Origin: Cyanocohniella sp. LLY | GTDB lineage: Bacteria > Cyanobacteriota > Cyanobacteriia > Cyanobacteriales > Nostocaceae | Direction: 5' to 3' | DNA length: 64,000 nt | NCBI GenBank assembly: GCA_022241785.1 | Contig: JAKOMP010000018.1 | Location: 1 to 64,000, forward strand | In this document: in pieces, positions 221 to 34,861 of the stretch | How the letters are laid out: the number at the start of each line of letters is the position of its first letter | Position numbering within the stretch: position 1 is the stretch's first letter | Position numbers and translations under genes: made by a program | The notes under the pieces: model-generated | Databases searched by the model: none | Seen by the model: the letters and a program-made list of their open reading frames with translations, nothing else | What the model was told of the DNA's origin: nothing

Positions 221-259
221 TCCGGAAAATGGTAGTTGCGATTAGAAGATTAAATTAGT

Positions 260-317
260 AGATGCACCCTGATAATAATTCCCCTGGCTGGCTAACACCC
301 GTTGGGGGATTTTTTTT
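260..317 (+). ncRNA. nsiR1: NsiR1-like small RNA, copy 1
   Basis: About 58 nt. It has the conserved 5' part CCCTGATAATAATT, then a C4/G4 hairpin (281-308) ending in an eight-T run, which makes an intrinsic terminator. The promoter motif TTTTCCGGAAAA (TCCGGA at 221-226) lies about 38 bp before the expected start. In PCC 7120 NsiR1 is an early heterocyst-specific RNA. The loop CTGGCTGGC matches copy 3. The exact 5' end is inferred. Confidence 0.8.
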
Positions 318-1711: not shown

Positions 1712-1932
1712 ATGACTTCATAGGATTTCACTTCTAGGACGGGGCCAATCATGGCTGCGGTCATGATATCTTCACGTACTTGTCCTGTGACTTTTGCGGC
1801 TTGTCCTGCTTTGAGTAAGTTTTTGTCAGCACCTCTGAGGATTTCGTAAGTAACACCCTCGTCTGTGACTAACGCCCAAGCGCCAGTACCAATGTCTCGG
1901 CGTTGAATTTTTCCTGTAACTGTAATGCTCAT
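1708..1932 (-). CDS. Small conserved-looking hypothetical protein
   Basis: 74 residues with alternating beta-rich stretches (SITVTGKIQRRDIGTGAW, VTYEILRG, AKVTGQVREDI). This looks like a small beta-barrel or OB-like fold, but no family is assigned. It is convergent with the thioredoxin-like gene, and the two stop codons interlock in CTAG at 1708-1711. The coding bias and compact layout suggest a real gene. G-rich tandem repeats begin immediately upstream of its start, so its promoter must lie within or beyond them. Confidence 0.55.
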   Translation of the reverse strand: MSITVTGKIQRRDIGTGAWALVTDEGVTYEILRGADKNLLKAGQAAKVTGQVREDIMTAAMIGPVLEVKSYEVI

Positions 1933-1935
1933 AGT

Positions 1936-2008
1936 TGGGGAGTGGGGAGTGGGGAGTGGGGAGTAGGGAGTAGGGAATGGGGGAATGATCAGGGGAATGG
2001 GGAGATGA
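1936..2008. repeat. G-rich heptanucleotide tandem repeat
   Basis: Repeats of TGGGGAG and TAGGGAG in tandem, drifting to AATGGGG. This is the short tandemly repeated repetitive (STRR) type common between genes of Nostocales. Similar blocks occur at 23536, 42775, 48731, 51450 and 59187. Confidence 0.8.
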
Positions 2009-2033
2009 GACTAGTGCCGCTTGTGAAGTCAAG

Positions 2034-2069
2034 TTGGCTTCGTTGGGTTGCGCTGCGCTTAACCCAACC
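2034..2069. repeat. Extragenic palindrome
   Basis: GTTGGGTT and AACCCAAC face each other around TGCGCTGCGC. It lies just after the end of the subtilase gene (minus strand) and may act as its transcription end. Similar hairpins are widespread in Nostoc intergenic DNA. Confidence 0.5.
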
Positions 2070-2081
2070 TACTTTTCGGCT

Positions 2082-3944
2082 CTAGCCTCTAGCCCCTATC
2101 CCCTCTTCGTTTTTCAATGCTAAACGAGCTAATCCATAACACAGTAGGGCATTGATTATGAGGAAGCTGCGAGCTAGGTAACTGCTTCCTAAGCCCCAAA
2201 CGGCTGGGTCATAAATGGCGCTGACTGTTAAAAATGCTGCTATGCCTAAGGTGGAACCAATGGCAAACCATTTCCAACTGGGATGCCCTAATAGCAATGC
2301 TATTAATACAAGGGGAATTAATACGCTGGCAAATAGTGGATTTAAGGCGTTGGCTCCTTGCAGGGTATTGCCTAATTCGGGAATGGAACTGCCTAGAACC
2401 CGGAAAGGCCATTGGGGTAGGTCAAAAATATATAATCCTCTGAGGAAGAATAAACCAGAACTACCAGCAATTAAGCCGCTGGATAATGACCAACTCCAGG
2501 TGAAGGGGAAGTAAACTCGCAAAAACCATGCTAGTAGATAGGAACCTAATACCATGAGGAGTTTGGGTACAAGTGCTACAGCACCGCCATCAATCCAAAA
2601 GCGGGGGTTGAGATAGCCGTTATCGCGCAACCAGCGGAAGAAGTCTTGGAAACTGATTTGTCCTTCAGTGGCTAGTTTGACTGCGGCTTCGGCGTTCAGT
2701 TGTCCAGCGCCATAGTAGTTCAAGCTATCATCCTGGATGACTCTTGCTGACTGCTTGAGGACTTTTAAAATTTCTTCTGGTTCGTTAACGCCACTAGCTT
2801 TAATTAATGCTGCGACACCTGCAACGTGGGGAGAAGCCATGCTTGTACCCTGGAGTTCCAAAAATACTCCTTCGCCGTTGTTTTCGGGGTCTATGGTTTC
2901 TTGCAGAATCTTACCAGCATCGCTACCACCAGGGGCGGAGATATCTACCCCAGCACCAAAGTTGGAATAAGGGGCTTTTTCTCCGTTGGGGCCAAATGCA
3001 GAAACGCCAATCACATAGGGGTAACGGGCTGGATAACTGGCACCATTATCATTTTCATTGCCGGCCGCAGCTACTATGGTTACGCCTTTTTTATGGGCAT
3101 ATTCAATGGCTTGTTTCATTAATTGGCTTTCACCACTACCACCCAAGCTCATATTAATGACATCTGCTCCATTGTCAGCAGCAAATTTAATGGCTTCGGC
3201 AATATCAGCAACGGTACCACCGCCATAGGCACTGAGTACCTTCAACGGCATGAGGTTGGCTTCGTAGGCGATGCCAGCTACGCCATAATTATTATTGGTA
3301 GCTTCGGCTATGGTGCCGGCAACGTGGGTTCCATGTCCATTATCATCGGTGGCTTCTTCACGGTCGTTAACGAAATCATAGCCTTTGACAAATTTCGTTT
3401 CTTGCAGGTCACGCACCTTAGTGATGCCAGTGTCAATCACTGCTACTGTGACACCAGAGCCTTTGGTTTGTCCCCAGGCGCCTTCCATGCCGATATTGTG
3501 CAGGTTCCACTGTTTACTGTAATATTGGTCGTTGGGGCCTTTTAATGAAGGCTGGGCTGTATTATTTTGAGATGGTGAAGTTTCTCTTGACCCAGTTACC
3601 GCGGCTGGTTGAGGAATTTTTCTATAGATGTAATTCGGCTCGATTATTTGTGTAAATTCGGCGAATCGAGATTTTTTCAGTTCTTTGAGTCTCTGGCGAT
3701 CGCCTTCAATAATATACACATGATCTCGCGCTGAAAACTGATTGTCTAATCTGGGTGTGACGTTGTATTCTTGAGCGATCGCTTGTAATTTCTGCTGTAC
3801 CAATTCTGTAGGAACATCTTCGCGGAAATCCAGCAAAATCGTCTCAAATTCGCCTTTAGCTGCCAATCCCTGAAAATTCAGGAACCCAAAAACCGCAGCC
3901 CCCAGCCCAATGACAAACAAGCACAATAATATAAGTCTTTTCAT
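2082..3944 (-). CDS. Membrane-anchored subtilisin-like serine protease (S8)
   Basis: 620 residues. An N-terminal hydrophobic segment (residues 1-20) is followed by a propeptide-like stretch up to about 110. The S8 catalytic domain has the triad motifs VAVIDTG (Asp, about 171), NGHGTHVAG (His, about 207) and GTSMASPHVAG (Ser, about 368), with the oxyanion-hole region AAAGNEND. The C-terminal 150 residues are hydrophobic, with several predicted transmembrane segments (for example VPKLLMVLGSYLLAWFL and LFASVLIPLVLIALLL). This is unusual for a subtilase and implies a membrane-bound, outward-facing protease. Calcium binding is likely for the family but was not shown here. Substrates are unknown. 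Confidence 0.88.
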   Translation of the reverse strand: MKRLILLCLFVIGLGAAVFGFLNFQGLAAKGEFETILLDFREDVPTELVQQKLQAIAQEYNVTPRLDNQFSARDHVYIIEGDRQRLKELKKSRFAEFTQIIEPNYIYRKIPQPAAVTGSRETSPSQNNTAQPSLKGPNDQYYSKQWNLHNIGMEGAWGQTKGSGVTVAVIDTGITKVRDLQETKFVKGYDFVNDREEATDDNGHGTHVAGTIAEATNNNYGVAGIAYEANLMPLKVLSAYGGGTVADIAEAIKFAADNGADVINMSLGGSGESQLMKQAIEYAHKKGVTIVAAAGNENDNGASYPARYPYVIGVSAFGPNGEKAPYSNFGAGVDISAPGGSDAGKILQETIDPENNGEGVFLELQGTSMASPHVAGVAALIKASGVNEPEEILKVLKQSARVIQDDSLNYYGAGQLNAEAAVKLATEGQISFQDFFRWLRDNGYLNPRFWIDGGAVALVPKLLMVLGSYLLAWFLRVYFPFTWSWSLSSGLIAGSSGLFFLRGLYIFDLPQWPFRVLGSSIPELGNTLQGANALNPLFASVLIPLVLIALLLGHPSWKWFAIGSTLGIAAFLTVSAIYDPAVWGLGSSYLARSFLIINALLCYGLARLALKNEEGIGARG

Positions 3945-4063
3945 ATTAACGGATCACCGCTTTTTGCCAGTTTGTTCACTACCATAACTTATCTATGTCC
4001 CTGGTTGGTGTAGTTTGCACTTTAGTTACAACATTCACACAAGATTTAGGACTTGTTTAAACA

Positions 4064-4498
4064 ATGGAACGTGGTCTTTTATGGTTGCCTTTGTTAGTGG
4101 CTTTTGTTTGGTTGGCTTGGCAGGGCGCTAAGGAATATCAAAAAGTTGAAGCATACCGCGTGTGGGCGGAAAATTTTGACAAAGCTAAGTATGATATTTA
4201 TGCTGTCATGGGTCAAAAAGAGCAAAATATAACTTGGGGAAAGCCCACACCGAAAGGCCCAATTAATTTAGCAACCTTTTCTTTATTAGATGTCAAAGAA
4301 ATACGACTTTTGATAGATGACAAAGTAGTAGCCGTCGAAGAAACACCAGAAAAAGGTCGTGTTATTGAGTTGGAATTTTTATTTTCCACATCTACTGAGT
4401 CAGTGCGCGTTCCGTTTACGGAAATTCCTTTAGCCGCAAAATGGGCTGAGTATTTGCAGGGAGTCTTGCCTAGCCTAGAGTTACCACACCATGAGTAG
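4064..4498 (+). CDS. Single-pass membrane hypothetical protein
   Basis: 144 residues. Residues 4-20 (GLLWLPLLVAFVWLAWQ) form a membrane segment followed by a basic, soluble domain of mixed alpha/beta character. No family was recognised. It is divergent from the subtilase gene, sharing a 120-bp intergenic space, which suggests neighbouring promoters but no proven link. Possibly a cyanobacterial conserved hypothetical. Confidence 0.6.
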   Translation: MERGLLWLPLLVAFVWLAWQGAKEYQKVEAYRVWAENFDKAKYDIYAVMGQKEQNITWGKPTPKGPINLATFSLLDVKEIRLLIDDKVVAVEETPEKGRVIELEFLFSTSTESVRVPFTEIPLAAKWAEYLQGVLPSLELPHHE

Positions 4499-9285: not shown

Positions 9286-10140
9286 TTAAGTTGATGTCTG
9301 CCGGTTGAGAATAATCATCTCATTGCCCACAACGGGGTTACGCGCTATTAGCCTATCTTGGGAATCGACAATTTCTAGATGGGTAAAATCAAGTTCTTGA
9401 GAGCGTTGTAATATTTCCGCCGCTAGTTTGTTTTGTTGAGATTCTGCGAGTGTATACCAATCATCGTTAATTTTGACAGTGAGATTGCTAGTGCGGAAGT
9501 TAGCTTGTATTGACTCTATCAAACCAGAGGCAAAGCGATCGCTTATTTCGGCTACTTGATTTTCAATCGCTGCAATCAGGGTTTGTTCTGGTGTCAAGTT
9601 GATAATTGGCTTTGGAGTCGGTGTCGGAGTTGGCGTTGGAGTCGGTTCCGGTGTTGGTTCTGGTGTCGGCGTCGGCGTTGGCGTTGGCTCCGGTGTAATT
9701 TCCTCTAGTGGCTGTGGTTCTGGTGTGGTTAATTCTGGTGGAATAGTGATTGTTGGACTTGGCGTTGGTACAGGAACCTCCTCAACTGGTGGGACTGTTG
9801 CTATTTCAGTCGGATTTTTAGTCAACAAAGTTGCAGTTGTCCAAAATATAGCTACAGTCATTACTGTCAAAATTCCTGTCAATACCGTATCTGACAAGTT
9901 ATTAGATACATTTGATGGTAAAAACAAACGGACTTGTCTTAAAAATCGATTCCATTGTGTTTCCAGACGTTGCCAAAAACTGGGTGTTGCTTCAGTACCT
10001 GTTGGGGGTGCAGTCTCCAGTTTGACTACCGCAGTTTCTAAAATACCAATCGTCCCTCGAAGAACTTGGATGATTTTGACTTTCCAAAAAGGTGGTTGGC
10101 GGGAATCAGGGGGTTGTGAGTTGGGATTGTCTTGTGACAT
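9286..10140 (-). CDS. Membrane protein with a Pro-Thr repeat linker
   Basis: 284 residues. One membrane segment lies near 88-105 (LTGILTVMTVAIFWTTATLL). A low-complexity linker of PTP and PEP repeats spans about 115-180. A soluble C-terminal domain (about 185-280) contains KINDDWYTLAESQQNKLAAE. The linker probably spans the cell wall or periplasm. It is encoded directly upstream of the DUF389 gene, and the 15-bp gap suggests an operon and possibly a shared complex. No known domain name was assigned to the C-terminal part. Confidence 0.65.
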   Translation of the reverse strand: MSQDNPNSQPPDSRQPPFWKVKIIQVLRGTIGILETAVVKLETAPPTGTEATPSFWQRLETQWNRFLRQVRLFLPSNVSNNLSDTVLTGILTVMTVAIFWTTATLLTKNPTEIATVPPVEEVPVPTPSPTITIPPELTTPEPQPLEEITPEPTPTPTPTPEPTPEPTPTPTPTPTPKPIINLTPEQTLIAAIENQVAEISDRFASGLIESIQANFRTSNLTVKINDDWYTLAESQQNKLAAEILQRSQELDFTHLEIVDSQDRLIARNPVVGNEMIILNRQTST

Positions 10141-10275
10141 GGAACTTTCACCAAAAGCAGCGAATCAAAGACAAATGACCAGCATTCTTACTGCTGCCTC
10201 TTTTGCCTTAATGTATCACTTCAATGCTCTTGCTACTTGGGCTAAACTGACTAGTTAATGAGTTTTGGTGAGTTT

Positions 10276-11190
10276 ATGAGCCTGAAACGCCGTCAATTTT
10301 TATTTTTAAGTAGCCTCGGCACTCTAGGTACAGGAGTTCTCGGTTGGACGTTAACTCGTCAAAATAATCAAGTTGCGAATATTGCTGACTCAACAGTCAT
10401 CGCCGCCACCCCACGCCAAAATGACTTGCTATTACGTTTTGCCTCTGTTGCGGATACGGGAACTGGCGCTAAAGGTCAATATGCTGTAGCTGATGCGATG
10501 AATTTTTATCACCAGCGAAATCCTTATGATTTGGTAGTTTTAGCTGGAGACAACATTTATAACGATGGCGAAATTGAAAAAATAGGTGCAGTTTTTGAGC
10601 GTCCCTATGAAAATTTACTGTCTCAGGATGTCAAATTTCACGCTTGTTTAGGCAACCATGATATTCGCACTGAGAACGGTAACCCACAAATTAAATATCC
10701 CGGCTTTAATATGCAGGGGCGTTATTACACATTTCGCCGTGACGCAGTGCAATTTTTTGCTTTAGATACTAACCGTAATGCTGATTGGAAAAACCAAGTA
10801 GTTTGGTTAGAACAAGAATTAAGCCGCAGTGACGCACCGTGGAAGGTAGTATTTGGGCATGACCCATTTTATTCATCGGGACACTATGGTGTAAGTCAAT
10901 CACTGATTAAACGCTTTGTACCTTTATTTAAAAAGTACAATGTGCAACTTTACATCAATGGACACGACCATCATTATGAGCGCACGCTTGCTATTGAAGG
11001 CACAACTTATTTAACTACTGGTAGTGGTGCCGGTGTTCGTCCTACAGGGCGTTCTAAGTGGACAGAACATTCTGCTGAAAGGTTGGCTTTTGCCGCTTAT
11101 GATGTGTATTCAGATAGAATTGAAATAAATACAATGGGTACTGATAAAAAGATTTTTGACAAAGGTGTCATTAAGTTTAAATCTGCTTAA
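10276..11190 (+). CDS. Tat-exported purple-acid-phosphatase-like metallophosphoesterase
   Basis: 304 residues from the ATG at 10276, which follows a GGTGAG ribosome site; an ATG at 10258 is the alternative. The N-terminus SLKRRQFLFLSSLGTLGTGV is a twin-arginine signal. Metal ligands are visible as FASVADTGTG (Asp), VVLAGDNIY (GDN), CLGNHD (GNHD), VVFGHDPFY and INGHDHHYE (GHDHH). The set matches the tartrate-resistant acid phosphatase branch. It is likely periplasmic and active on phosphomonoesters. No PHO-box was recognised upstream. Confidence 0.85.
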   Translation: MSLKRRQFLFLSSLGTLGTGVLGWTLTRQNNQVANIADSTVIAATPRQNDLLLRFASVADTGTGAKGQYAVADAMNFYHQRNPYDLVVLAGDNIYNDGEIEKIGAVFERPYENLLSQDVKFHACLGNHDIRTENGNPQIKYPGFNMQGRYYTFRRDAVQFFALDTNRNADWKNQVVWLEQELSRSDAPWKVVFGHDPFYSSGHYGVSQSLIKRFVPLFKKYNVQLYINGHDHHYERTLAIEGTTYLTTGSGAGVRPTGRSKWTEHSAERLAFAAYDVYSDRIEINTMGTDKKIFDKGVIKFKSA

Positions 11191-11204: not shown

Positions 11205-11222
11205 GGTGGGCAAATGCCCACC
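11205..11222. terminator. Short hairpin between the phosphatase and ptuA
   Basis: GGTGGGCA and TGCCCACC form a perfect 8-bp stem with a 2-nt loop. It has no T run, so it is either a weak terminator or one of the dispersed GGTGGGCA palindromes seen again near 23419. Confidence 0.4.
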
Positions 11223-11252: not shown

Positions 11253-12506
11253 ATGAAAGTCAAGCGCCTAAAAATGCAATCATTCCGGGGGATTGGCGAT
11301 TTGACATTGGAATTTGACGAAAATAAACCGACTGTACTGATTGGTATTAATGGAGTAGGTAAATCAAGTATTCTGGATGCAATATCCCTCTTACTTTCTC
11401 GTTTTATGGAATGGATTGGAGGTGTTTCTCCAACAGAAAAACTAAGAGCATTCAGTGAACAAGATATTTCTAATAAACATTCATTCACAAAACTCAAGAT
11501 TACGGCTTCATTAAGAGGTGTAGAAGAAGATTGGGAAATATCCCGAATTTATAATGGAGTATCGCAAGATTCAGGTCATAAAAAGATTAAAGCGGCTGCT
11601 AATGCAATTTGGCGACATTGGCAAAATGAGCCTGAATACAATCTACCATTAGTAGTATATTATTCTGTAAATCGTGCCGTTATTGATATTAGTCTAGAAA
11701 TTCCTAAAAAAACTCAGTTTAAACAAATAGATGCTTACGAGAAAGCACTCATAGGTAACAGAAATGATTTTTCTAGTTTTTTTCAATGGTTTAGAAATCG
11801 AGAGGATTTAGAAAGTGAGTTGCTACGAGATAACCGTGATTATCAAGATATACAATTAGAAGCAGTCAGGCAAGCTATATCTTTATTGATACCCAGTTTT
11901 TCTAACTTACGTGTACGGCGTTCTCCCTTAAGAATGACTGTAATCAAGCAAGGAGAAGAACTGATAGTTAATCAATTATCTGATGGTGAGAAATGCTTGC
12001 TAGCAATGGTAGGAGATTTAGCAAGACGTTTGGCAATTGCTAACCCAGGTTTAGAAGATCCATTGCAAGGTAGTGGAGTGGTGTTAATTGACGAAATTGA
12101 ACTACACCTACACCCAAAATGGCAACGAGAAATCATTCCAGCTTTAACACGCACATTTCCTAATTGCCAATTGATTGTCACTACACATTCCCCTCAGGTC
12201 ATTAGTCATGTTAAACCTGAAGGAATTTATATTTTAGAAAAAACAGATAATAATGTTATTGCCAAACGGCCAGAAAGTTCTTTTGGTAAAGATAGTAATA
12301 GTATCTTAGAAGACCTGATGGATGTTCCTGAACGTCCACAAGAAATAAAAGAAAGGCTTTTAGAATTATTCAGATTAATTGATGCTGGTAATTTAGAAGG
12401 TGCTAGACAGTTACGTCAACAGTTAGTACATGATATTGGTGCAGATGAAGCAGAATTTGTCAAAGCAGATGTACTCATCCGGCGTAAGGAAATTCTCAAT
12501 CGATGA
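11253..12506 (+). CDS. ptuA: Septu defence ATPase PtuA-like (AAA/ABC type)
   Basis: 417 residues. Walker A is GINGVGKSS (residues 31-39). The ABC-like signature is QLSDGEKCLLAM (about 240). Walker B is VVLIDEIELHLHPKW (about 275), and the H-loop is IVTTHSPQVISH (about 310). The N-terminal KVKRLKMQSFRGIGDLTLEF is typical of RecF/OLD-like DNA ATPases. Its stop overlaps the start of the HNH gene by 4 bp (ATGA), the classic PtuA-PtuB arrangement. In Septu systems the ATPase controls the HNH nuclease, which degrades invader DNA. Phage specificity cannot be read from the sequence. Other OLD-like ATPase/HNH pairs cannot be fully excluded. Confidence 0.78.
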   Translation: MKVKRLKMQSFRGIGDLTLEFDENKPTVLIGINGVGKSSILDAISLLLSRFMEWIGGVSPTEKLRAFSEQDISNKHSFTKLKITASLRGVEEDWEISRIYNGVSQDSGHKKIKAAANAIWRHWQNEPEYNLPLVVYYSVNRAVIDISLEIPKKTQFKQIDAYEKALIGNRNDFSSFFQWFRNREDLESELLRDNRDYQDIQLEAVRQAISLLIPSFSNLRVRRSPLRMTVIKQGEELIVNQLSDGEKCLLAMVGDLARRLAIANPGLEDPLQGSGVVLIDEIELHLHPKWQREIIPALTRTFPNCQLIVTTHSPQVISHVKPEGIYILEKTDNNVIAKRPESSFGKDSNSILEDLMDVPERPQEIKERLLELFRLIDAGNLEGARQLRQQLVHDIGADEAEFVKADVLIRRKEILNR

Positions 12507-13153
12507 AGTACATCAAAAAAAATCAGGAACCACACAAATTTTCTAGGTGGAAAGCTTTAGAAAACGATGATTGGAAACCTAGTTGGGATGATAATTTTCA
12601 AGCACCAGAAAAACCTATTGTGCATGATGCTTTGCTAAAAGAACAGGGTTATCTCTGTTGCTATTGTGGAATGCGTATCACTAGAACAACTAGCCACATA
12701 GAACATCTCCAACCTCGCACTAACTATCCACATTTGGCACTAGAGTACAGAAATTTAATTGCTTCATGTCAAGGAGAAAGTGAAGAACCTCCTCTAGTTC
12801 CAGTACATTGTGGTCATAAGAAAAAATATTGGTATGATACGCTTTTAACGGTTTCGCCTCTAGAAATCAACTGTGCAGATTTTTTTCAATACCCTGCTTC
12901 TGGCGAAATTTTGCCAACAGATGATCCCTATCAAAGTGCTGCTGCTGAAACAACAATTGAGAAGCTTGCACTTAATATTAACAAGCTGCAAAAAATGCGA
13001 AAGGCGGCAATTGATGGTGTATTACTAGATATTGATGCTTTAACCGATGTAGAAATACAGCAACTAGCTCAAGGTTACGACAAACCTGATGGCAATGGAC
13101 AACATACGCCGTTTTCTGCTGCAATTATCTATTTACTGAAGAATTATTTTTAA
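12503..13153 (+). CDS. ptuB: Septu HNH endonuclease PtuB-like
   Basis: 216 residues. HNH core: CCYCGMRI (two zinc-like cysteines, about 51-54), then SHIEHLQPR (His-Glu-His, about 65-73), then LALEYRNLIASC (Asn, about 88). A second Cys/His pair occurs in PVHCGHKKKYW. This matches the PtuB family found with PtuA and in retron Ec78. Translation is probably coupled to ptuA through the ATGA overlap. Confidence 0.8.
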   Translation: MKYIKKNQEPHKFSRWKALENDDWKPSWDDNFQAPEKPIVHDALLKEQGYLCCYCGMRITRTTSHIEHLQPRTNYPHLALEYRNLIASCQGESEEPPLVPVHCGHKKKYWYDTLLTVSPLEINCADFFQYPASGEILPTDDPYQSAAAETTIEKLALNINKLQKMRKAAIDGVLLDIDALTDVEIQQLAQGYDKPDGNGQHTPFSAAIIYLLKNYF

Positions 13154-13216: not shown

Positions 13217-13513
13217 ATGATTTTAGAAGCAGTAATGCTGAATATCAAACCCGGACTGGAAGATGATTTTGAATTGGCTTTCAAAAAAGCTTCTAGTATT
13301 ATCTCTTCAACTAAAGGATATTTATCTCATGAACTTCATAAATGTATAGAAGCTCAAGGTAAATATTTGTTACTTGTCAAATGGGACAGTTTAGCAGCTC
13401 ATACTGTAGAATTTAGAGGCTCTGCTGAGTATCAAGAGTGGAAAAAATTGCTGCATCATTTCTATGAGCCATTTCCCACTGTTGAACACTTTGAAGAAAT
13501 AGAATTAGCTTAA
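13217..13513 (+). CDS. Antibiotic biosynthesis monooxygenase-like domain protein
   Basis: 98 residues of ferredoxin-like beta-alpha-beta pattern. It runs MILEAVMLNIKPGLEDDFELAF, then KGYLSHELHKCIEAQGKYLLLVKWDS, then GSAEYQEWKKLLHHFYEP and EEIELA. This matches the ABM family of small dimeric oxygenases and heme-degrading-like proteins. The exact reaction is unknown. It lies just after the Septu genes on the same strand, but a 63-bp gap and housekeeping-like character argue against it being part of the defence system. Confidence 0.8.
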   Translation: MILEAVMLNIKPGLEDDFELAFKKASSIISSTKGYLSHELHKCIEAQGKYLLLVKWDSLAAHTVEFRGSAEYQEWKKLLHHFYEPFPTVEHFEEIELA

Positions 13514-31048: not shown

Positions 31049-33922
31049 CTACTTCTTCACCGCTGGATACTGCTGTAACACTTGTTGTAAATATTGCCCA
31101 GTATAAGACCGGGGATTTTTTGCAACTTCCTCCGGTGTACCCACACCAATAACTTCTCCGCCTTTATCGCCACCTTCTGGCCCCAAATCTATCACCCAGT
31201 CAGAACAACGAATGACATCTAAGTTGTGTTCAATAACTAAAATTGAATTACCTTTATCTACTAACCTTTGCAACACATCTAACAATTTATGGACATCATA
31301 AAAAGATAACCCTGTAGTAGGTTCATCGATTAAATAAAGTGTCTTACCTGTGGCGCGGCGAGAGAGTTCTGTGGCTAATTTTACTCGTTGCGCTTCTCCA
31401 CCAGATAAAGTTGTAGCAGGTTGTCCCAATTTTACATAACCTAAGCCGACATCATATAAAGTTTGCAAACGAGTTACGGCTTTGGGAATATTTTGGAAAA
31501 ATTCTAAACTCTCCTCAACTGTCATATTGAGAACATCAGAAATAGACTTATCTTTGTATTTCACCTGCAAAGTTTCGCGGTTATATCTCGCACCTTTACA
31601 CACATCGCATTGCACATAAACATCGGGAAGAAAGTTCATTTCAATGACATTTACACCTTGTCCGCTACAAGCTTCGCAACGCCCACCTTTAACATTAAAA
31701 GAAAATTGACCCGGTTTATATCCCCTGGCTTTGGCTTCTACTGTTTGAGAAAATACATCTCGTATCGCATCAAAAATACCTGTGTAAGTTGCAGGATTAG
31801 AACGTGGTGTACGTCCTATGGGAGATTGGTCAATCACAATTGCTTTATCAACAGCATTTAATCCCTTAATTTCTTGTAAATGTTTCGGTAAAGGAACCTT
31901 TTTGGTGAGATGATGTTGTAATGATGGATAAAGTAATTCATTAATTAAAGTAGATTTCCCTGAACCAGAAACACCAGTCACGGCGACAAGTTTACCTAAA
32001 GGAATTTCTACATCTATATTTCTTAAGTTATTGCGATGGGCATTTTTAATTACCAAACTGCGTCCGTTTCCTTCTCGACGTTCTTTTGGTGTATGAATTA
32101 CCCGTCTCCCAGATAAATAAGCACCAGTTAATGATTCTTCTGCTGTGAGTAAAGCTTGTAAGTCACCTTGGGCGATTATATTACCACCATGAATCCCCGC
32201 ACCAGGTCCAATATCAACAATATGATTGGCTGCACGAATGGTTTCTTCATCATGCTCAACTACGATTAAAGTATTACCTAAATCGCGCAATTTAGTTAAG
32301 GTTTGGAGTAACCGTCCATTATCTCGTTGATGCAAACCAATACTCGGTTCATCTAAAACGTAAAGTACACCGGTTAACCCAGAACCAATCTGCGTTGCTA
32401 AACGAATACGTTGGGCTTCCCCTCCAGAAAGAGTCATGGCGGGACGGTCAAGGGTAAGATAATCTAAACCCACATCTAACAAAAATTGCAATCTAGCTTT
32501 GATTTCTTTTAAAACTAAATCTGCAATTTGTATTTGCCGATCGCTTAACTTTAACTGATCAATTCTCCCCCGACAATCCCGAATCGATACACCTGTTAAC
32601 TCTAAAATGCCATATTGTCCCAAGCGTACCGCTAAAGCTTCTGGTTTTAAGCGTTTCCCTTGACAAACCTCACACGGCTGGTCAACTAAATATTGCTCTA
32701 ATTTCTGCTTAACTAACTCAGTACCACCTTCATATTGCCGTTGTAAAATGGGAATTGCACCCTTAAAAGTCTGTTTTCTTTGGGCTGCTGTGGTTCCTTC
32801 GGTGTTCTCTCCATACAACACAGTCTGCTGTTGTTCTACCGTCAGCTGATTCCACTTAGCTTGTAACTCAAACCCATAAGCCTGTCCGACACTATAAAGC
32901 AATTCCAAATAATAAGAATTGTCTTTTTCTGACCAAGGCGCGATCGCAGCATAAACTGGTGCTTCTGGGTCAGGTACAATCAAATCCGGCGCAAATCTTT
33001 TTAATGTCCCCAAACCATGACAGTGGGGACAAGCACCATAAGGTGAGTTAAACGAAAACAACCGGGGTGATAATTCTTCCATCACCGCCCCGTGGACTGG
33101 ACAAGCAAAGTTCTCGGAAAATACTAATTCTTCTTCTCTATCTTCATCTGACACCAGAATGTTAGCAATACCACCAGATTGCTTTAAGCACGTAGATAAA
33201 GAATCCACCAACCGCTCTTGAATACCGTCTTTTTTCACCAAGCGGTCAATGACAACTTCAATGGTGTGAGTCAAATTTTTATCTAGCTCAATAGAGTCAG
33301 ACAATTCCCGCACTTCCCCATTGATGCGTACACGCACAAAACCCTGAGATGCCAAACTAGATAGCAGCTTGCGGTGAGTACCTTTTTTACCCCGGACAAC
33401 TGGTGCAAGAATTTGGAAGCGGGTACGATCAGGTAAATCCCCGATGCGATCGCACATCTCATCAATGGTCTGAGGCGCAATGGAGCGATCGCAGATGGGA
33501 CAATGAGGTTCACCAGCGCGACCAAACAATAGTCGCAAATAATCGTAAATTTCCGTCACCGTCCCCACTGTGGAACGGGGATTATGGGAAGTTGATTTTT
33601 GGTCAATGGAAATCGCTGGACTTAAGCCTTCAATGGCTTCCACATCCGGTTTATCTAATTGTCCGAGAAATTGTCGGGCGTAGGCGCTGAGGGACTCCAC
33701 ATAACGCCGTTGACCTTCTGCAAAAATGGTATCAAACGCCAGAGAAGACTTACCCGAACCAGAAACGCCAGTAAATACAATCAGGCGATCGCGTGGTAAT
33801 TCCAAGTCAATATTTTTCAGATTATGCTGCCTAGCACCCCGAATGCGAATGGTATTCTGGCTATTGTGGTTAGGGTAGGGAAGATGTCCATTTAAAGATG
33901 TGGCTAGCTTTTTATCTGACAT
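31049..33922 (-). CDS. uvrA: Excinuclease ABC subunit A
   Basis: 957 residues from the ATG at 33922 (the frame extends to a TTG). Two ABC modules are present. The first Walker A is [12 protein letters not shown]. Zinc finger cysteines occur in CPICDRS and CPHCHGLG, and again in CEACSGQGV with [12 protein letters not shown] signatures [12 protein letters not shown] and [12 protein letters not shown], and Walker [12 protein letters not shown] and [10 protein letters not shown], are intact. It recognises bulky DNA lesions in nucleotide excision repair with UvrB. A LexA box lies upstream at 33993-34006. Confidence 0.97.
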
Positions 33923-34105: not shown

Positions 34106-34861
34106 ATGGTATCGCATATCCCACCACAGACCCAACCAGAGGTCATTTACCCAGATAGCGACGGAAAACCAGTGGCGAATAACACGATTCAGTTTCGCTG
34201 GATTGTTGAAATTAAGCAAAATCTCGATTGGCTATTTGCTGATCATCCTCATGTATTTGTTGCCGGAGATTTATTTTGGTATCCGGTAGAAGGACGTAAT
34301 ACTATCGTCAACGCCCCAGATGTCATGGTGGTCATAGGTAGACCGAAAGGCGATCGCTTGTCTTATTTACAATGGAAAGAAGGCGGAATCTCACCCCAAG
34401 TAGTGTTTGAGATTCTCTCACCCAGTAATACGAAAGTAGAAATGGAGAAAAAATTACTTTTCTATGACCGTTACGGTGTGGAAGAGTATTACATTTATGA
34501 TCCTGACAGTAATAGTTTACAAGGTTGGCTGCGTGGGGAAGATGGCTTAGATATCATCCCCCAAATGGCAGATTGGGTGAGTCCGAGATTACAAATTCGT
34601 TTCGTACCATCAGAGACTGGTTTGCAACTTTATCGTCCAAATGGTGAACGTTTTTTGAGTTATGCAGAAATTTCCCAACGCTTAGAACAAGAACACCAAC
34701 GGGCGGAACAAGCAGAACAAGCTAGAAGAAATGCTGTACCTCAATTATTGCAAATGGGTTTGAGTGTAGAACAAATTGCCCAAGCCTTGAGTTTATCAGT
34801 GACAGAAGTGCAATCGCTTGTTCCAGAATCAGGTTTTGATTTTAGGGAAAAAATGGTCTGA
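34106..34861 (+). CDS. Uma2 family endonuclease-like protein
   Basis: 251 residues. The Uma2/DUF820 core spans about 20-190: VNAPDVMVVIG (Asp) and VVFEILSPSNTKVEMEKK (Glu-x-Ser plus Lys), then YDRYGVEEYYIYDPDS. It resembles a PD-(D/E)xK nuclease site, with a C-terminal coiled coil (LEQEHQRAEQAEQA) and a helix-turn-helix-like tail. These proteins are abundant in cyanobacteria and often relic-like; nuclease activity is not established for most. Confidence 0.82.
   Translation: MVSHIPPQTQPEVIYPDSDGKPVANNTIQFRWIVEIKQNLDWLFADHPHVFVAGDLFWYPVEGRNTIVNAPDVMVVIGRPKGDRLSYLQWKEGGISPQVVFEILSPSNTKVEMEKKLLFYDRYGVEEYYIYDPDSNSLQGWLRGEDGLDIIPQMADWVSPRLQIRFVPSETGLQLYRPNGERFLSYAEISQRLEQEHQRAEQAEQARRNAVPQLLQMGLSVEQIAQALSLSVTEVQSLVPESGFDFREKMV

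What the first reader, a model, noticed from the sequence alone, without database searches (positions are those of the whole stretch)
11253..13153. Septu-type anti-phage module
A RecF/OLD-like ATPase overlaps by 4 bp an HNH nuclease with the PtuB pattern. This is the minimal Septu defence architecture. It is embedded between a phosphatase and a monooxygenase-like gene without other defence genes or an integrase.
Basis: partly seen in the sequence, partly recalled or inferred. Interest (0 to 1): 0.65.

Follow-up and report, generated by a model that had tools for sequence, protein, structure and literature searches.

The report
Mosaic Septu phage-defence pair, fixed site
This is a genuine two-gene Septu anti-phage system in a cyanobacterium; unlike defence genes that hop around, it sits behind the same housekeeping gene in many related genera, and its presumed sensor and nuclease parts have been swapped independently between strains.

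Summary
In detail: PtuA (11253-12506, 417 aa) and PtuB (12503-13153, 216 aa) overlap by 4 bp. PADLOC PtuA and PtuB profiles are the best hits (6.9e-159; 5.9e-73). ATPase and HNH residues are intact, predicted folds match solved PtuA and PtuB, and no retron reverse transcriptase was found. It is a type I (PtuA+PtuB) Septu; defence itself is untested. A near-core divergent gene pair (9286 and the exported phosphoesterase 10258) is followed by PtuAB in many Nostocaceae and some other cyanobacteria, with a 5-bp gap in eight Nostoc-type loci. Remnants at the site show loss in place. Within this fixed site, PtuA aa ~22-230 and, separately, PtuA aa ~345-417 plus PtuB behave as two cassettes exchanged by recombination. 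One pair of strains is 89-100% identical from phosphoesterase towards PcrA except 56-80% across the first cassette; another differs mainly in the second. The PtuA tail aligns fully only to PtuB-bound chains, so cassette 2 is probably dock plus nuclease. Cassette 1 as trigger sensor is inferred. Known system, newly seen evolutionary behaviour.

The parts
11253..12506 (+). PtuA, ABC/RecF-like ATPase (Walker A K37, signature LSDGEK 242-247, Walker B D280-E281, H312)
   Evidence: PADLOC PtuA 6.9e-159; motif columns invariant or nearly so; AF2 pLDDT 82, best PDB matches retron and Septu PtuA, VIA Z 41-39.7
12503..13153 (+). PtuB, HNH nuclease (H65, E67, H68, N84; C52, C55, C89, C103)
   Evidence: PADLOC PtuB 5.9e-73; TIGR02646 105.6 bits, cut-off 52; residues conserved in 19 aligned PtuBs; Foldseek 8eea_G PtuB 2.4e-9
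11316..11942 (+). cassette M: PtuA aa ~22-230 (most variable aa ~50-135), exchanged as a block between strains
   Evidence: breakpoint maps, block dS, Mantel, AU tests
12285..13153 (+). cassette TB: PtuA C-tail aa ~345-417 plus all of PtuB, exchanged as a block independently of M
   Evidence: T-PtuB distance correlation r=0.81-0.86 against M-PtuB 0.17-0.24; tail aligns fully only to PtuB-bound chains
10258..11190 (+). upstream flank: calcineurin-like phosphoesterase (MPPE) with a Tat-type N-terminus, near-core; not thought part of Septu
   Evidence: 47/60 genera against PtuB in 24/60; twin-arginine N-terminus read from sequence
9286..10140 (-). gene divergent from MPPE, the second half of the conserved pair; no Pfam match
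13217..13513 (+). downstream flank: ABM-domain protein
   Evidence: PF03992; MPPE-ABM-PcrA order also without PtuAB in L120, L122 and, with other genes between, L121
13571..15901 (-). downstream flank: PcrA/UvrD-type helicase (named from sequence, not profile-scanned)
   Evidence: synteny; MPPE-PcrA distances r=0.91
11205..11222 (+). perfect hairpin GGTGGGC-AAAT-GCCCACC between MPPE and PtuA, no T run
   Evidence: sequence; single copy in the genome; related hairpins at the same place in L035, L083, L141

Best explanation
A type I (PtuA+PtuB) Septu system. SHOWN: two overlapping genes, intact ATPase and HNH motifs, purifying selection, a fixed syntenic site, two independently exchanged cassettes. 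INFERRED from Septu and retron I-A work: PtuA forms an ATP-binding oligomer that holds PtuB through its C-tail; phage infection releases the inhibition; PtuB then cuts a nucleic acid (tRNA-Tyr or DNA), stopping phage growth. INFERRED here and less sure: cassette M (PtuA ~22-230) carries the surface that meets the infection trigger, and cassette TB is the dock plus nuclease. Homologous recombination through the conserved P-loop, the ABC signature region and the core flanks swaps them, so a population keeps many sensor x effector combinations at one chromosomal site, as type I restriction loci do with HsdS. The confidence given is for Septu identity plus cassette exchange; for M as the sensor I would give about 0.4.
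For: PADLOC and NCBIfam profiles; conserved motifs, with PtuB H68-N84 in the same 16-residue spacing as the essential H75/N91 of Septu EcB88; folds; no retron RT found, the two RTs above cut-off being RT-Cas1-Cas2 and a group II intron. Site. Mosaic: L033/L040 dS is 0.16 (MPPE), 0.21 (PcrA), 0.12 (PtuB) but 1.31 in M; L033/L034 dS is 0.12 in M but 1.30 in PtuB. Sharp edges. AU tests reject one genealogy (p 3.7e-7, 1.4e-30, 1.4e-45). Each main M type occurs with more than one PtuB type and the reverse. The PtuA tail aligns to aa 417 in 8eea_D and 9e90_A but only to 340-365 in PtuB-free entries 8sux, 9e91, 9n6c, 8ee4. Window/L033 dN/dS about 0.03-0.22 in PtuA and PtuB blocks.
Against: No activity data for any member of this clade. 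The trigger role of M is inferred from variability and exchange only; a variable oligomer or regulator interface would look the same. The target (tRNA-Tyr or DNA) cannot be assigned: PtuB scores equally to the DNA-targeting and the tRNA-targeting types (42.8 and 41.9 bits). Half of the complete cyanobacterial PtuAB lie away from the MPPE site, so horizontal movement also happens.
Confidence: 0.85

Rival explanations
1. Effector half of a type I-A retron whose RT and ncRNA act from elsewhere.
For: PtuA scores better to retron PtuA (198 and 174 bits) than to Septu 8ee4 (130 bits); PADLOC ATPase_I-A 1.1e-110 is second best.
Against: No RT gene adjacent in the window; the two RTs above cut-off in the assembly are RT-Cas1-Cas2 and a group II intron; PtuA lacks the ~60-aa N-terminal extension of the Eco7 and Ec83 retron PtuA, which align only from residue 61-64; NF041760 retron PtuA scores 348 against a cut-off of 500.
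Confidence: 0.03
2. Three-gene system in which the phosphoesterase is a functional Septu partner.
For: Same-strand neighbours in 26 of 52 complete GTDB pairs; gap of 5 bp in eight Nostoc-type loci and 8-9 bp in several others, including other families.
Against: MPPE is near-core and often lacks PtuAB beside it (47 against 24 of 60 genera); it carries a Tat-type export signal while PtuAB has none; many PtuAB loci have no MPPE.
Confidence: 0.06
3. M is simply a fast-evolving region; no cassette exchange.
For: M also has somewhat higher dN/dS than the backbone within a type.
Against: Synonymous divergence jumps with it: dS 1.31 in M between strains with 0.12-0.21 around it, and dS 0.12 in M between strains with 1.30 in PtuB; AU tests.
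Confidence: 0.03
4. The MPPE 3' side is an insertion site repeatedly re-colonised by Septu, rather than an ancestral site with losses.
For: Patchy presence; G010, 89% identical in MPPE, has other sequence there; PtuAB elsewhere in Dolichospermum, Hormoscilla and others.
Against: Remnants in place (L124, L132, L086, L094), near-identical junctions, and mostly ordinary-looking genes at the site when PtuAB is absent.
Confidence: 0.3

Closest known systems
Septu, E. coli PtuAB (PDB 8eea, 8ee4)
   Same: PtuA+PtuB only, no RT; full-length fold match Z 39.7 over 409 residues
   Different: 26-30% identity; PtuA 465 aa; fixed synteny and cassette exchange not described in the papers found
Septu EcB88, E. 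coli (PMC13096335)
   Same: two-gene Septu; HNH residues in the same spacing
   Different: shown to need ATPase and HNH residues and to cut the tRNA-Tyr variable loop; target and activity here unknown
Retron I-A Eco7/Ec78 and Ec83 PtuAB
   Same: highest sequence and fold similarity for PtuA
   Different: those belong with an RT and msDNA and have an extra N-terminal ~60 aa; none here
Core defence hotspots of P. aeruginosa (PMC10250203)
   Same: defence genes at a fixed site between core genes
   Different: those host dozens of different systems; this site holds alleles of one system
Type I restriction hsd loci with exchangeable HsdS domains (from memory)
   Same: one locus, conserved flanks, swapped modules
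   Different: different protein family; a specificity role of cassette M is unproven

Membership tests
Septu type I | PtuA: ABC/RecF-like ATPase with Walker A, signature, Walker B | tested here: met
Septu type I | PtuB: HNH nuclease with catalytic His and Asn | tested here: met
   H65, H68, N84 conserved; H68-N84 spacing equals EcB88 H75-N91
Septu type I | ptuA and ptuB adjacent, no RT | tested here: met
Septu type I | PtuA6:PtuB2 assembly, ATP inhibition (from memory of Li et al. 2024) | not testable with these tools
   only monomer folds predicted
Septu type I | protects against phage | not testable with these tools
   needs plaque assays
Retron type I-A | reverse transcriptase with ptuAB | tested here: not met
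   no RT beside it; genome RTs above cut-off are of other kinds
Retron type I-A | msr/msd ncRNA | tested here: inconclusive
   no Rfam hit at the locus, but not all retron ncRNAs are in Rfam

The most novel reading that the evidence does not exclude
Cyanobacterial Septu is a fixed, polymorphic immune locus in which recombination assorts an exchangeable sensor cassette inside PtuA and an exchangeable dock+nuclease cassette, generating combinatorial anti-phage specificities much as type I restriction loci do. The M cassette then marks where PtuA detects infection.
Probability: 0.4. Interest if true: 0.7.

Novelty: new member of a known kind. Interest (0 to 1): 0.45.

Why it matters
What Septu senses is, as far as I know, not settled. 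A natural set of alleles that differ mainly in PtuA aa ~22-230 (L033/L040, L034/L069) or mainly in the tail plus PtuB (L033/L034) is a ready-made domain-swap experiment to find the trigger-sensing and target-choosing parts. It also shows a defence system kept at one core-flanked site across genera and diversified by allele shuffling, rather than only by moving in islands.

Tried and rejected
Retron membership: rejected, no retron RT. A general defence hotspot at the MPPE 3' side: ORFs there in genomes lacking PtuAB look mostly ordinary by eye, with a Dam-like methylase in L119 and L125 and a PIN-domain-like ORF in L127; not scanned with profiles. Mobility: no plasmid or phage record at 60% identity or more to this PtuA. 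Promoter and terminator scans: no more sites than in shuffles. The mad3 defence hit at 31049 is UvrA. The structural paper of Li et al. 2024 is not held, so its details are from memory.

Full report
The observation. The two ORFs are exactly as described, with a 4-bp ATGA overlap that is kept in nearly all complete cyanobacterial homologues. PADLOC's best families are PtuA (6.9e-159) and PtuB (5.9e-73). NCBIfam gives TIGR02646 above cut-off for PtuB; the retron-specific PtuA and PtuB models score below their cut-offs. Walker A K37, signature LSDGEK, Walker B D280-E281 and H312 of PtuA, and H65, E67, H68, N84 and the cysteines of PtuB, are conserved across the alignments. The H68-N84 spacing equals H75-N91, both essential in Septu EcB88 (PMC13096335).

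Fold. AlphaFold2 models (PtuA pLDDT 82, PtuB 78) match retron I-A PtuA and Septu PtuA (VIA Z 41.0 and 39.7 over 409 residues each) and Septu PtuB (8eea_G, 2.4e-9). The PtuA C-tail (aa ~341-417) is aligned in PtuB-containing complexes such as 8eea_D and 9e90_A. In structures without PtuB the alignment stops at aa 340-365 (8sux, 9e91, 9n6c, 8ee4). I read the tail as the PtuB dock; this is an inference from which residues align, not from inspected contacts.

Not a retron. No RT gene lies beside it. Of the RTs above cut-off in the genome, one is followed by Cas1-like and Cas2-like ORFs (C72) and the other reads as a group II intron maturase with an HNH end (C162) (identified by reading the ORFs, not by profile). 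The PtuA lacks the ~60-residue N-terminal extension of Eco7 and Ec83 retron PtuA.

The site. The window belongs to a heterocystous cyanobacterium (two NsiR1 RNAs). In one genome per genus (60 genera) MPPE is present in 47 and PtuB in 24. PtuAB lies directly behind MPPE in many Nostocaceae and in Argonema, Limnofasciculus, Trichocoleus and Oscillatoriales USR001, in all in 26 of 52 complete GTDB cyanobacterial pairs (window included). In eight Nostoc-type loci the gap is exactly 5 bp, in several others 8-9 bp; in the window it is 62 bp. MPPE-ABM-PcrA occurs without PtuAB in L120 and L122, and with other genes between in L121. PtuA remnants remain behind MPPE in L124 (aa 1-73) and L132 (aa 1-55 and 386-417); L086 and L094 are also truncated. 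This favours an old site with repeated loss, but re-entry by recombination through the flanks is not excluded.

The mosaic. Against the window, PtuA aa 1-50 and 200-340 are about 70-98% identical in nearly all relatives examined, while aa 50-200 fall into types that differ down to 25-60%; the tail and PtuB fall into other types. In 26 MPPE-site loci, tail and PtuB distances correlate at r=0.81, M and PtuB at 0.17. In the 15 with PcrA, MPPE and PcrA correlate at 0.91, MPPE and M at 0.12. AU tests reject a common genealogy. Codon analysis excludes simple fast evolution: L033/L040 dS is 0.16 in MPPE, 0.21 in PcrA, 0.12 in PtuB and 1.31 in M; L033/L034 dS is 0.12 in M and 1.30 in PtuB. Sliding identity places the edges near aa 22 and 200-230 for M and near aa 345 for TB. 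The clades used in the AU tests were chosen after seeing the clusters, so the p-values are indicative; the dS contrast does not rest on that choice in the same way, since it compares blocks within fixed strain pairs, though the pairs were picked as clear examples.

Mechanism. By homology, PtuAB is an infection-triggered nuclease complex. E. coli Septu EcB88 and retron-Eco7 deplete tRNA-Tyr, while Septu of ATCC 25922 was reported to act on nicked DNA (cited in PMC11555353). The window's target cannot be assigned. The most likely reading of the mosaic is sensor (M) and effector (TB) modules under recombination-driven diversification; only the exchange is shown.

Comparison and score. This is a member of Septu type I by every feature that could be tested. 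Fixed core-flanked defence sites are known in P. aeruginosa, but there with many unrelated systems. None of the papers found in the held library is, by title and abstract, about a fixed cyanobacterial Septu site or cassette exchange; subscription literature was not searched. Interest is moderate: the gene pair is ordinary, the allele structure of its locus is not.

Noticed in passing
window 11205-11222: Perfect hairpin GGTGGGC-AAAT-GCCCACC between MPPE and PtuA, single copy in the genome; similar hairpins at the same place in L035, L083, L141 although the genes are only 5-9 bp apart in other strains.
   Followed up: partly
window 256-316 and 533-593: Two NsiR1 nitrogen-stress RNAs in tandem (Rfam RF02399), marking a heterocyst-forming cyanobacterium.
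   Followed up: no
L152 (G000:C72) 1830-4462: Reverse transcriptase ORF followed by Cas1-like and Cas2-like ORFs: an RT-associated CRISPR adaptation cluster in the same genome.
   Followed up: no
L119 2102-2932 and L125 3233-4108: Dam-like DNA adenine methylase behind MPPE in two genomes without Septu there.
   Followed up: no
window 34106-34861: Uma2-family putative restriction endonuclease (PF05685).
   Followed up: no
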